Below, piece by piece: positions 2,180 through 33,768 of a stretch of 36,763 nt of DNA (its first letter is position 1; every line of letters starts with the position of its first letter). Location of the stretch: assembly GCA_020849175.1 (NCBI GenBank), contig JADLGR010000059.1, positions 1 to 36,763 of the forward strand, written 5' to 3'. The notes below the pieces were generated by a model that was not told the origin of the DNA, did no database searches, and saw only the letters and a program-made list of their open reading frames with translations. Both the position numbers and the translations under genes were made by a program. The stretch is from Deltaproteobacteria bacterium (GTDB taxonomy: Bacteria; Myxococcota_A; UBA9160).

Positions 2180-3001
2180 CTACCTCGCGAGCAGCACCGC
2201 AACCGGCGACGTCCTCACCACGGCGGACGCGTTGCTGCCGAGGAAGTACTCGTGGATCCGGTTGCGGGCGAACGCGCCCATCACGATGAGGCTCGCGCGT
2301 ACGGAGCGGGCAGCATCGACGATCTTGACGTCGGGCCGTCCGAGCGTCGAAGACGTCTCGCGGCCCGTCGCGGCGAGGGGACCGAGGAGCGCGCGAACCT
2401 CTTCGAAGCGCGCAGCCGCCCGACCCTTGTCCTTCGAGTCGACGAAGACGTGGACGGCGGCGCCGATGCGCGTGGCGATCTCGACGGACAGACGCGCGGC
2501 GAGGACCGATCCGGGCGAGCCGTCGAACGCGAGGAGCAGCGGGCCACCCAGATTCGTACCGCTCGGAACCACGACGCAGGGCCGCGTCGTCTTGCGGAGC
2601 ACGGCGTCCATCGTCGGCCCGGCGAGGCCCGTGCGGAAGGCCTGGTTCTCTCCGTCGCGGCCGATCACGACGAGGTCGGCGCTCTCGCCCCGCTCGACGA
2701 TCCGGTCGTCCGCGGCGCCGGACACACACTCGCACTCGACTCCGAGGCTCGCTGCGCGTGCTCGTTCGGACAGGCGCTGGCACACCGCATCGGCGCGCGC
2801 CTTGAGGAACCCTTCGATCGCGTCGAGCGGCGGTGGCGCGACGCCGAGCGTCGCCGTGCGAAGACTCTGTACGCGCGCCGTCTCGATCACGGTCACGCCG
2901 CGAAGCCGGGTGCCGAGAGACTTCGCGAGCGAGATCGCGAAGCCCTCGGCTGCGACCGCTCCGTCCGATCCATCCGTCGCCAGCAGGAGCGTTTCGATCA
3001 T
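2180..3001 (-). CDS. Universal stress protein, tandem UspA domains
   Basis: Two UspA-like halves: [15 protein letters not shown]... and [33 protein letters not shown]... Confidence 0.85.
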
Positions 3002-3041: not shown

Positions 3042-4574
3042 TCAAGAGAGCAGACGTCCGAGCGGCGTTCCCCAGACCCAGCGCAGCACGCGCTGGAGCC
3101 AGGCCAGCTTCTTGCCGGAATACGGATACCAGAGAAACTCGTTCTTCGCGCCGAAGCGGTCGCTCATGATCGACTGGGCGTGGCAGAAGCTCCGCAGCCC
3201 GTTCTCGCCGTTGACCTGGCCGATCCCACTCTCCTTCACGCCGCCGAAGGGAGACTCGGTCGCGCCGTACGTCAGCATGCAGTCGTTCACGACGACGGAG
3301 CCGGACTGCACGGCGCGGGCGAGCAGATCGCCCCTGCGCCGGTCGCGCGTCCACACGTTCGCGTTGAGGCCGTACCGCGAGTCGTTCGCGAAGCGCAGGG
3401 CCTCGGCCTCGTCGCGAACGCGCAGGATCGGCAGCACCGGTCCAAAGGTCTCTTCACGCATGATCGTCATGTCGTGGGTAACGTCCGTGAGGACCGTCGG
3501 CTCGTAGAACAGGCCCGGGAGGTCGGGATTGCGGCGCCCGCCCGTGAGAACCCTCGCGCCGCGGGCGCGCGCCTCCTCGACCTGACGTTCGACGATCTGG
3601 AGCTGCGCGGGCCAGATCATCGGCCCGACGTCGAACTCACCGCTCGCCCCCTGCCGCAGCGCCGCCGTCTTCTCGACCACCTTCTGCGTGAACGCGTCGG
3701 CCACCTCGTCGACCACGTAGACGCGCTCCGTCGAGACGCAGATCTGCCCCGCATTGCTGAACGCACCGTAGACGGCGCCGTTCGCCGCTCGCTCCAGGTC
3801 GGCGTCGGCGCAGACGATCATCGGGTCCTTGCCGCCGAGCTCGAGCGTGCACGGGACGAGATTCCTCCCGCACGCCTCGGCGACCTTTCGCCCGGTCCGC
3901 ACGCTGCCCGTGAACGAGATCTTGTCGACGCCGGCCTCGACGAGCGCCGAGCCGGTTTCTCCGTCGCCGAGCAGGACCTGGAACAGCCCTTCCGGGATGC
4001 GCGTCGCGCGCAGCAGATCCTGCAGCAGGAGCCCCGAGTAGGGCGTCACCTCCGACGGCTTGAGCAGCACGGCGTTTCCGGCGAGCAGCGCCTGGATGGT
4101 CGGGTTGAGCGCGAGCATCAGCGGAAAGTTCCACGGCGTGATGATCCCGACGACGCCGAGCGGGCGATAGGCGATGCGAAGGCGCTTGGTCTTGAGCAGG
4201 TGCAGCGAGACGCTGCGGTCGGCAAGGAGCCGCGGCGCCCGCTTCGTCCAGTACTGGATGGCGTCGCACGCGGCCAGCACCTCGACGGCGAACGCCTCGG
4301 TGCGCGGCTTGCCGGTCTCGCGAACGATCGTGTCGACGACATCGTCCTGACGCGCGATCAGCGCCGGAATCGCTCGCGCGAGGATCCGCCCCCGCTCGGC
4401 CACCTTGAGCGCCGCCCACTCGGGCTGAACCTTGCGCGCGACCTCGACCGCAGCGCGCACGTCGGCGGCGGTCTGGACCTCGATCTCTCCGAGGACATCG
4501 AGCGTCGCGGGACTGCGCAGCCGCAGGCTTCGGCGGCCGATGGTCTTCTCTTCTCCGGGCTCGACGATCGCCAT
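3042..4574 (-). CDS. NAD(P)-dependent aldehyde dehydrogenase family protein
   Basis: VVGIITPWNFPLML, FTGSVRTGRKVAE, LELGGKDPMIVCADADLE, GQICVSTERVYV and EETFGPVLPI motifs. ATG at 4574 is preceded by GGAGGT; ORF track opens at TTG 4631. Confidence 0.93.
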   Translation of the reverse strand: MAIVEPGEEKTIGRRSLRLRSPATLDVLGEIEVQTAADVRAAVEVARKVQPEWAALKVAERGRILARAIPALIARQDDVVDTIVRETGKPRTEAFAVEVLAACDAIQYWTKRAPRLLADRSVSLHLLKTKRLRIAYRPLGVVGIITPWNFPLMLALNPTIQALLAGNAVLLKPSEVTPYSGLLLQDLLRATRIPEGLFQVLLGDGETGSALVEAGVDKISFTGSVRTGRKVAEACGRNLVPCTLELGGKDPMIVCADADLERAANGAVYGAFSNAGQICVSTERVYVVDEVADAFTQKVVEKTAALRQGASGEFDVGPMIWPAQLQIVERQVEEARARGARVLTGGRRNPDLPGLFYEPTVLTDVTHDMTIMREETFGPVLPILRVRDEAEALRFANDSRYGLNANVWTRDRRRGDLLARAVQSGSVVVNDCMLTYGATESPFGGVKESGIGQVNGENGLRSFCHAQSIMSDRFGAKNEFLWYPYSGKKLAWLQRVLRWVWGTPLGRLLS

Positions 4575-4601
4575 GGCACCTCCGACGGACGCGGCCCGGG
4601 C

Positions 4602-4631
4602 AGGGTACGAGAGCCCCGCCGGACGTGTCAA
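4602..4631 (-). promoter_or_regulatory. Candidate sigma70-type promoter of the aldehyde dehydrogenase gene (TTGACA-N18-TACCCT)
   Basis: Minus strand TTGACA at 4631-4626, 18-nt spacer, TACCCT at 4607-4602, ~28 nt upstream of ATG 4574. Confidence 0.45.
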
Positions 4632-4642
4632 TCACTCCCGCA

Positions 4643-4666
4643 CCCGCGGTGGCCGGCCACCGCGGG
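4643..4666. repeat. 24-bp perfect palindrome CCCGCGGTGGCC/GGCCACCGCGGG in a divergent intergenic region
   Basis: Direct reading; the two 12-nt arms are exact reverse complements with no spacer. Confidence 0.9.
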
Positions 4667-4704
4667 ATCCTTGCGGGCCGGCGCGGGGCATGCGATAGGG
4701 AGGT

Positions 4705-5790
4705 GTGGCCGGCACCGATCTTCCGCTGCTCCGCGCGTTCCCTGCGATCGAGCGGGCACTCCCACGGATCCCGTTCATCCGCGTGCCGACGCCGGTCGAG
4801 CCTCTGGCACTCGGCGGCATCGCTCCAGGCACACTCTTCGTGAAGCGCGACGACCGCTCCTGCCCGCTCTACGGAGGAAACAAGCCGCGCAAGCTCGAGT
4901 TCCTGCTGGGGCGTGCGCGGGCACGCGGATGCCGCACGCTGGTGACGACGGGGGGGCTCGGGACGAACCACGGCCTTGCGATGACGATTCTCGCGCGCTC
5001 GGCCGGCATCTCGTCCGTGCTCGTGCTCGTCGACCAGCCCGTGACGCCCGGCGTACGCGAGACGCTTCGCCTGCATCTCGCATACGGCGCAACGCAGATC
5101 GCAGCGCGCAACGTGGGCGGTGCAGCGCTGCAAACGCTGCGCGCGCTGGCGGTGAGCGCGCTGCACGGCGAACGGCCGCAGCTCGTTCCGACGGGCGGCT
5201 CGTGCGCTCTCGGCAACGTGGGCTGCGTCTCGGCGGGCTTCGAGCTCGCGGAGCAGATTCGCGCGGGCGAATGCCCCGAGCCGGAGACGATCTACGTTGC
5301 CGTCGGTACCGGGGGATCGGCGGCCGGCCTCGCCGTAGGCCTGCGGCTCGCCGGCCTTCGAAGCCGCGTGCAAGGCGTGCTCGTGCTCGACATCCTGCCT
5401 CCTTCGCCTGCGCGGCTCGCGCGCGCAGCGCGAGCGACGCTTCGGCTGCTGCGCCGAGCGGATCCGTCGATTCCCGAGCTGAAGTTCGATGCGTCCGACT
5501 TTCCGCTCGTCCGCGACCAGCTCGGCGCCGGCTACGGCGTGCCGACGCCGGCCGCGACCGAGGCGGTCGCCGCGGCCGCGGCGGCGGGACTGCGGCTCGA
5601 GACGACGTACACCGGCAAGACGCTCGCATGCATTCGCGCGCTCGCCGCCCGCGGCGCGCTCGGCAAGGGCCCGGTCCTGTTCTGGGACACCTACAACGCC
5701 ATCGACGTCGCCGCAGCGGCGCCGCGAAGCGTGTCCGAAGCGGACCTTCCGCGCGGCATCCGGCGCGCAATCGCCCGCGCCGCGCATTGA
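4705..5790 (+). CDS. PLP-dependent fold-type II enzyme, D-cysteine desulfhydrase / ACC deaminase-like
   Basis: GTG start after GGGAGG; VKRDDRSCPLYGGNKPRKLEFLL (PLP Lys), GTGGSAAGLAVGL and KTLACIRAL motifs. Confidence 0.8.
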   Translation: MAGTDLPLLRAFPAIERALPRIPFIRVPTPVEPLALGGIAPGTLFVKRDDRSCPLYGGNKPRKLEFLLGRARARGCRTLVTTGGLGTNHGLAMTILARSAGISSVLVLVDQPVTPGVRETLRLHLAYGATQIAARNVGGAALQTLRALAVSALHGERPQLVPTGGSCALGNVGCVSAGFELAEQIRAGECPEPETIYVAVGTGGSAAGLAVGLRLAGLRSRVQGVLVLDILPPSPARLARAARATLRLLRRADPSIPELKFDASDFPLVRDQLGAGYGVPTPAATEAVAAAAAAGLRLETTYTGKTLACIRALAARGALGKGPVLFWDTYNAIDVAAAAPRSVSEADLPRGIRRAIARAAH

Positions 5791-6374: not shown

Positions 6375-7909
6375 TCACGCAGCTCATCGAGCGCGGCGGC
6401 GACCTCTCCGAACGCGCGCAGGTCTGCGTGATCGGCAGTGGCGGCGGCGGAGCCGTCGTGGCAGCGGAGATCGCGAGCGCCGGACACGACGTCGTCGTCC
6501 TCGAACAAGGCCACTACTGGACGAAGGCCAACTTCACGCAGCGTGAAGACCAGATGCTGCCGCGCCTGTTCGAAGAGGCCGGGATGCGGCAGACGAGCGA
6601 CGGTGCGATCCAGATCCTGCAGGGCCGCAACATCGGCGGCTCGACCGTTCACAACCTCTGCTACTCGTTCCGCACGCCGGACCCGATCCTCGCGATGTGG
6701 CGCGAGGAGCACGCGCTTCCCGACCTCACGCCCGAGGCGCTGCGGCCGAGCTTCGAGCGCGTCGAGAAGAACCTCAAGGTCAAGCAGATCCTCGAGCAGC
6801 AGGTGAACGCGCTCAACCGTCGCATCCGCGCCGGCGCCGAGAAGCTCGGCTACTCGGGGCTCGTCACGAAGCACAACCGCGAAGGCTGCATCGAGTCGGG
6901 CTACTGCATCCTCGGCTGCTCCTACGACGCCAAGCAGTCGATGCTCGTGACCTACGTACCGCGCGCCGATGCGGCCGGCGCGCGCATCTACGCCAACGCG
7001 CGCTCCGACCGAATCGAGATCGGCCCCGGACGCACCAAGACCGTGACCGGCTCCGTCGTCGATCAGTCGGGGCGCGCGATGGGTCGCGTCACGGTCGAGG
7101 CCCCCATCGTCGTTCTCGCCGCCGGAGCGATCAACTCGCCCGACCTCTGGCTGCGCAGCGGCCTTCCGAACCCGCACGGCGAGGTCGGGCGCAACCTGCA
7201 CCTGCACCCCTCGGCGATGGTCGCGGGCTTCTTCGACGAGCCGATCGATGCCTACCGCGGAATTCCCCAGAGCTACTACGTCGACGAGTTCATCGACCTC
7301 GACCGCGACCCGCGCAGCGGCTACGTGCTGATGCCGATCGCGGGCTTCCCGGTCCTGACGGCGGCGAGTCTTCCGGGGTTCGGCCGCGAGCACGCGCGGC
7401 AGATGCGCGACTTCGCGAAGCTCGGCGGCCTGCTCGTGCTGCTCCACGACCGCAGCGCGGGCCGCGTCGAGCCCGGCTCGTCTCCGGGGCGACCGAAGAT
7501 CACCTACACGCTCGAGCCCGACGACCGGCGCCTGCTCGCAGAGGGCCTGCTGCACAGCAGCGAGGTGCTCTTCGCCGGCGGCGCCGAGCGCTGCCTCGTC
7601 CCGTTCACACCCGATGCGCTCGTGCTCCGGTCGGGCGATGATCTGAACACGATCACGAAGCGGGGCGTTCGCGAGGGCGAGATCGTCCTCAACTCGACGC
7701 ATCCGCAGTCGACCCTGCGGATGGGTGGAGACCCGAAGCGCTCGGTCGTCGGCGCGTTCGGCGAGAGCCACGAGGTGCCGGGACTCTTCGTCGCCGACAT
7801 GAGCGTGTTCCCGACGTCTCTCGGAGCTCCGCCGCAGATCACGACCGCGGCGCTCGCCGACCGCACGGCCCACCACGTGCTCGACCGCTGGACCGAGCTC
7901 GCGGGCTAG
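6371..7909 (+). CDS. GMC family FAD-dependent oxidoreductase
   Basis: VIGSGGGGAVVAAEIASAGHDVVVLEQG (FAD), GRNIGGSTVHNLCYSFRTP, CIESGYCILGCSYDAKQS, STLRMGGDP...LFVADMSVFPTSLGAPPQITTAALA. Confidence 0.92.
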   Translation: MITQLIERGGDLSERAQVCVIGSGGGGAVVAAEIASAGHDVVVLEQGHYWTKANFTQREDQMLPRLFEEAGMRQTSDGAIQILQGRNIGGSTVHNLCYSFRTPDPILAMWREEHALPDLTPEALRPSFERVEKNLKVKQILEQQVNALNRRIRAGAEKLGYSGLVTKHNREGCIESGYCILGCSYDAKQSMLVTYVPRADAAGARIYANARSDRIEIGPGRTKTVTGSVVDQSGRAMGRVTVEAPIVVLAAGAINSPDLWLRSGLPNPHGEVGRNLHLHPSAMVAGFFDEPIDAYRGIPQSYYVDEFIDLDRDPRSGYVLMPIAGFPVLTAASLPGFGREHARQMRDFAKLGGLLVLLHDRSAGRVEPGSSPGRPKITYTLEPDDRRLLAEGLLHSSEVLFAGGAERCLVPFTPDALVLRSGDDLNTITKRGVREGEIVLNSTHPQSTLRMGGDPKRSVVGAFGESHEVPGLFVADMSVFPTSLGAPPQITTAALADRTAHHVLDRWTELAG

Positions 7910-8331
7910 CGATCGTCTCGCGGCACGCCGGCGAAGTAGCGCAGCAGATCGGTTTCGGTGAGCAGACCGACCAGGGTCTGCCCAGCCATCACGGGCAGGC
8001 AGCCGATCCTGCGCTCCGCCATCACCAGCGCCGCGTGCTCGACCGGGGCATCGGCCTCGATCACCACGGGTGGTGCGGACATCACACGAGCGATCTCGAC
8101 GCCGTTCAAGAACGCACGGCGCTCGTTCGGGTCGAAGCCGGTCAGGTTCGAGAGCGAAGCGCGCAGCAGGTCTCGCTCTGAAACCACGCCCACGAGCTGC
8201 CCGCCTTGCACCACGGGCATGTGGCGCACGCGCCCCAGCGTCATGATATCTTCGACCGTCGACAGACGATCGCTGGCGCCGATCGTGACGATCTTCTCCT
8301 GCATCAGGTCACGGACGCGCGTCTGGCCCAC
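7906..8331 (-). CDS. CBS-domain pair protein
   Basis: VRDLMQEKIVTIGASDRLSTVEDIMTLGRVRHMPVVQGGQLVGVVSERDLLR and a second CBS half. Confidence 0.9.
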   Translation of the reverse strand: MGQTRVRDLMQEKIVTIGASDRLSTVEDIMTLGRVRHMPVVQGGQLVGVVSERDLLRASLSNLTGFDPNERRAFLNGVEIARVMSAPPVVIEADAPVEHAALVMAERRIGCLPVMAGQTLVGLLTETDLLRYFAGVPRDDR

Positions 8332-33735: not shown

Positions 33736-33768
33736 GAGGCCCCGGAGCGCACGGCGCTCCGGGGCCTC
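33736..33768 (+). terminator. Strong 14-bp perfect hairpin after groEL, probable intrinsic terminator
   Basis: GAGGCCCCGGAGCG-CACGG-CGCTCCGGGGCCTC followed by GTCGTTT. Confidence 0.75.

What the first reader, a model, noticed from the sequence alone, without database searches (positions are those of the whole stretch)
4602..4704. 24-bp perfect palindrome next to a TTGACA promoter between divergent aldehyde dehydrogenase and PLP-enzyme genes
CCCGCGGTGGCCGGCCACCGCGGG (4643-4666) is an uninterrupted perfect palindrome. It sits 11 bp upstream of a TTGACA-N18-TACCCT promoter facing the aldehyde dehydrogenase and ~38 bp upstream of the GTG start of the desulfhydrase/ACC-deaminase-like gene. A perfect 24-mer is unlikely by chance even at this GC content. 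No regulator is encoded nearby, so it may be a trans-acting operator or a cruciform/bidirectional terminator.
Basis: partly seen in the sequence, partly recalled or inferred. Interest (0 to 1): 0.6.

Follow-up and report, generated by a model that had tools for sequence, protein, structure and literature searches.

The report
Stray palindrome beside a conserved promoter
The 24-base palindrome is real but occurs in no related genome, and similar long palindromes are scattered through this genome's coding DNA, so it is probably incidental; the conserved feature is the neighbouring promoter of an aldehyde dehydrogenase and stress-protein gene pair, which occurs once per genome in about half of the related genomes examined.

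Summary
The palindrome CCCGCGGTGGCCGGCCACCGCGGG (4643-4666) is exactly as described and is the only copy in its genome at up to 3 mismatches. The evidence does not support it as an operator. It is absent from all 79 other genomes of the order examined, including the sister species. Its half-sites are no commoner than a reversed control. In 813 kb of the same genome there are five perfect palindromes of 24 bp or more, four of them inside genes. It has no T-tract and sits between divergent genes, so a terminator is unlikely.

A profile of it finds one strong site per genome in 40 of 41 positive genomes, out of 80. All 32 loci checked lie before the aldehyde dehydrogenase gene or the universal stress protein gene that follows it. 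A short dyad in the spacer is kept even when it slides. This suggests a sigma70-type promoter with a dimeric regulator bound in its spacer; the regulator is unknown and not encoded next to the site. The focal genome is the only one of 25 distinct spacers in which this dyad is broken.

The parts
4643..4666 (.). 24-bp perfect palindrome, species-specific, between the two -35 boxes
4600..4633 (-). Conserved promoter footprint of the ALDH-usp operon: TTGACA (4631-4626), 18-bp spacer (4625-4608), TACCCT (4607-4602)
   Evidence: conserved in orthologous loci; 36.1 bits, next best in genome 12.8 bits; one per genome in 40 of 41 positive genomes of the order; base-by-base conservation
4613..4622 (-). 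Degenerate copy of the spacer dyad: TCCGGCGGGG where relatives have TCCCGCGGGG
   Evidence: dyad kept in 24 of 25 distinct spacers, this genome is the exception
4671..4699 (+). Putative PLP-gene promoter: TTGCGG (4671-4676), 17 nt ending in TGC, GATAGG (4694-4699); likely leaderless transcript
   Evidence: CTTGCGG and ATGCGATAGGG are kept in the sister species; assignment of boxes is inference
3042..4574 (-). Aldehyde dehydrogenase (succinic-semialdehyde-dehydrogenase-like), ATG at 4574 with GGAGG upstream
   Evidence: PF00171, E 3e-146; NF006916 just above its cut-off
2180..3001 (-). Universal stress protein gene following ALDH; the conserved element stands before it where ALDH is missing
   Evidence: PF00582
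4705..5790 (+). PLP-dependent enzyme of the D-cysteine desulfhydrase/ACC deaminase type, exact activity unknown
   Evidence: PF00291; all NCBIfam equivalogs below cut-off

Best explanation
The region holds two conserved promoters back to back: one for ALDH-usp (minus strand) and one for the PLP enzyme (plus strand). The ALDH-usp promoter is sigma70-like, and its 18-bp spacer carries a conserved GC dyad that is most likely bound by a dimeric regulator encoded elsewhere (inferred). The 24-bp palindrome fills most of the unconserved 39 bp between the two -35 boxes. It most likely belongs to a genome-wide background of long perfect palindromes and has no dedicated function. Shown: the conservation pattern, the single copy per genome, the palindrome background. 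Inferred: promoter activity, regulator binding, and the lack of palindrome function.
For: Palindrome single-copy and absent from 79 other genomes of the order. Five perfect palindromes of 24 bp or more in 813 kb, four in coding sequence, and the non-coding share of palindromes matches that of the sequence. In the sister species both promoters align but the stretch between the -35 boxes is 13 nt shorter and not palindromic. The promoter footprint is found once per genome before ALDH or usp, including 17 examined loci outside the training set. The spacer dyad is kept beyond column composition.
Against: Only one other genome of the genus and three of the family are held, so recent gain of a functional operator cannot be excluded. 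The palindrome fits neatly between the two -35 boxes, where an activator or repressor site would be expected. The dyad shuffle test does not correct for relatedness. The excess of palindromes in coding DNA was not tested against a codon-aware null.
Confidence: 0.68

Rival explanations
1. The palindrome is a species-specific operator: a dimeric regulator encoded elsewhere binds it and represses or activates both divergent promoters at once.
For: Location between two -35 boxes (11 nt from one, 4 nt from the other); perfect symmetry; intergenic position.
Against: Single copy and no excess of paired half-sites in the genome; absent in the sister species although both promoters are kept; perfect 24-bp symmetry is longer than most regulators need.
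Confidence: 0.16
2. Operator turnover: the regulator of the ALDH promoter now uses the palindrome. The focal genome alone has lost the spacer dyad (CCGGCGGG for CCCGCGGG), and the two ends of the palindrome (CCCGCGGT, ACCGCGGG) each differ from CCCGCGGG by one base.
For: Only exception among 25 distinct spacers; the resemblance is read directly from the sequence.
Against: CCGCGG is common in 70% GC DNA, so the likeness may be chance; the base change may be neutral or an assembly error; no intermediate is known.
Confidence: 0.06
3. The palindrome extrudes as a cruciform or hairpin under supercoiling generated by divergent transcription and tunes both promoters.
For: Strong fold of the single strand, -18.5 kcal/mol, z -5.1; divergent promoters generate negative supercoiling between them (general knowledge).
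Against: Not conserved; a GC-only centre (CCGG) is slow to extrude (general knowledge); palindromes of the same length lie in genes.
Confidence: 0.05
4. Bidirectional intrinsic terminator.
For: A GC-rich stem-loop is possible on both strands.
Against: Both genes are transcribed away from it, no T-tract follows on either strand, and the scan finds no terminator.
Confidence: 0.02

Closest known systems
Sigma70-type promoter with an operator in the -35/-10 spacer (TetR-, MarR- or MerR-type control)
   Same: TTGACA and a TAnnnT -10 box, fixed 18-bp spacer, and a conserved inverted repeat inside the spacer
   Different: TACCCT is a weak match to TATAAT (not reported by the consensus scan); only one target per genome; regulator unknown; the dyad slides by up to 3 bp, unlike MerR operators, which sit at a fixed place
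Palindromes made by template-switch (quasipalindrome) mutation
   Same: Long perfect palindromes exceed Markov expectation and lie mostly in coding DNA; the process is described in E. coli (PMC7202029, abstract seen)
   Different: No imperfect ancestor could be shown; alignment with the one sister sequence does not tell

Membership tests
Trans-acting operator (24-bp palindrome) | Recurs at more than one target, or is conserved at the orthologous site | tested here: not met
   One copy in the genome, absent in 79 other genomes of the order, absent at the orthologous site
Trans-acting operator (24-bp palindrome) | Bound by a protein, with effect on expression | not testable with these tools
   Needs binding and reporter experiments
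Intrinsic terminator | GC stem followed by a T-tract, downstream of a gene | tested here: not met
   No T-tract; genes divergent
Dispersed repeat (REP-like) | Many copies in the genome | tested here: not met
   One copy at up to 3 mismatches
Sigma70-type promoter (ALDH-usp) | -35 TTGACA and -10 TAnnnT at 16-18 nt, conserved at orthologous sites | tested here: met
   Invariant TTGAC, TA and final T with an 18-nt spacer in 32 aligned loci
Sigma70-type promoter (ALDH-usp) | Transcription start at the expected place | not testable with these tools
   No RNA data
MerR-type promoter | Dyad at a fixed place in a long spacer (about 19 bp) | tested here: inconclusive
   Spacer fixed at 18 nt, but the dyad centre moves by up to 3 bp among genomes

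The most novel reading that the evidence does not exclude
An order-wide dedicated regulator acts on one promoter per genome (ALDH-usp). In the focal species its spacer site has decayed and the 24-bp palindrome, whose ends are near copies of that site, has taken over: a snapshot of operator turnover.
Probability: 0.06. Interest if true: 0.55.

Novelty: new member of a known kind. Interest (0 to 1): 0.26.

Why it matters
The palindrome alone is probably ordinary, and it shows that in a 70% GC genome a perfect 24-mer is weak evidence of an operator. The promoter beside it is a clean single-target footprint shared by about half the held genomes of an uncultured, Myxococcota-related order. It offers bait for finding an unknown regulator of an aldehyde dehydrogenase and universal stress protein pair.

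Tried and rejected
Half-site regulon search: no excess over the reversed control. Inverted duplication of the left arm as the origin, by alignment with the sister species: not supported; left and right arms fit about equally and 41% of shuffles do as well. Rfam: no match. Terminator scan: none. Wider search in the class: the promoter element was not found in the other order of the class or in family f5 of the same order. Literature search for the spacer motif: nothing relevant. Regulator next to the element: in 17 relatives' loci the gene upstream is mostly a CBS-domain protein gene; no obvious regulator was seen by eye, and no family scan was run on these. Two family scans failed on a wrong frame and were repeated.

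Full report
Observation. The 24-bp palindrome at 4643-4666 is exact and is the longest zero-loop palindrome of the window. The two genes are an aldehyde dehydrogenase (ATG at 4574, minus strand) and a PALP-fold PLP enzyme (GTG at 4705, plus strand). The ALDH promoter boxes are TTGACA at 4631-4626 and TACCCT at 4607-4602, with 18 nt between them.

Is it more than chance? In the window alone it looks unusual: an order-2 Markov model gave 0.1 palindromes with arms of 11 or more, and none with arms of 12 or more, per window in 60 simulations. In an 813 kb sample of the same genome (window included), five perfect palindromes with arms of 12 or more were found, against 0.3-0.8 expected from Markov models. 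Four lie in predicted coding sequence, two of them longer than this one. The non-coding share of palindromes (1 of 5 at arms of 12 or more, 6 of 35 at arms of 9 or more) equals the non-coding share of the sequence by a crude gene map (17.5%). So the genome carries an excess of long palindromes that does not favour intergenic DNA. I infer a mutational or compositional source; a codon-aware control was not run.

Is it an operator? The 24-mer is single-copy at up to 3 mismatches. Paired inner half-sites with 0-14 nt between them are no commoner than the reversed control. It is absent at up to 2 mismatches from the 79 other genomes of the order, and at up to 3 from the two other genomes of the family. 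The ALDH/PLP divergent arrangement is found in 16 loci, own included, so the comparison is at orthologous sites. In the sister species both promoters align almost base for base, while the stretch between the -35 boxes is 26 nt instead of 39 and has no palindrome. No T-tract or terminator is present, and both genes point away.

What is conserved. The ALDH promoter is strikingly conserved. A sequence-only profile (R1) was built from 18 loci. In the own genome it gives 36.1 bits at this site and 12.8 bits at the next best. In the order, 41 of 80 genomes have a match at E <= 0.001, 40 of them exactly one and one genome two. Twenty-three of these genomes were not in the training set. Of the 32 loci aligned, 17 of them from outside the training set, all have ALDH or usp downstream on the same strand. 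Information drops to near background a few bases outside the -35 and -10 boxes, so the footprint is the promoter itself. Where ALDH is missing, the same element stands directly before usp. The element was not found in the other order of the class. Titles of the named relatives are mostly Myxococcota or deltaproteobacterium.

The spacer. All 32 aligned loci fit an 18-nt spacer. It holds CCCGCGGG or CCCCGGGG, whose centre moves by up to 3 bp between genomes but stays symmetric: 24 of 25 distinct spacers have a dyad with arms of at least 4, against 17.4 on average, and no one of 2000 column shuffles reached 24. Relatedness of the sequences is not corrected for. This fits a dimeric protein bound over the promoter. 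The focal genome is the only exception, with CCGGCGGG. In relatives without the PLP genes the gene upstream of the element is mostly a CBS-domain protein gene, and no obvious regulator was seen next to it.

The plus-strand promoter. TTGCGG (4671-4676) and TGC-GATAGG (4691-4699) are identical in the sister species. With normal geometry transcription would start at the GTG, so the PLP mRNA may be leaderless. This is inference.

Verdict. The palindrome is real, but the evidence favours an incidental, species-specific sequence between two conserved promoters. The most novel reading left open is operator turnover from the broken spacer dyad to the palindrome, whose ends resemble it; I give it about 6%.

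Noticed in passing
window 4600-4633 (minus): Promoter footprint conserved across the order, one copy per genome, before ALDH or usp; the focal genome alone has the spacer dyad broken by one base.
   Followed up: yes
window 33736-33768: Inverted repeat with perfect 15-bp arms and a 3-nt loop (GAGGCCCCGGAGCGC ACG GCGCTCCGGGGCCTC), possibly a hairpin or terminator.
   Followed up: no
window 4671-4707: The putative PLP-gene -10 box ends 5 nt before the GTG, which suggests a leaderless transcript.
   Followed up: partly
L126 1259-1286; L129 10644-10669; L084 3702-3725; L128 12008-12031: Perfect palindromes of 24-28 bp inside predicted coding sequence of the same genome, more than Markov models expect.
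   Followed up: partly
window 7906-8331 and loci L159-L163, L166, L174, L175: A CBS-domain protein gene lies next to the ALDH/usp element in many relatives; in the focal genome the PLP, Tat-signal protein and GMC oxidoreductase genes lie in between.
   Followed up: partly
genome G000 C301:2145-2175 (L044): A weak promoter-like match (TTGACA-CCCCCGGGAGGCTCTCG-TTCCCT) a few bases before an ATG; may be a second, degenerate site or an ordinary promoter.
   Followed up: no
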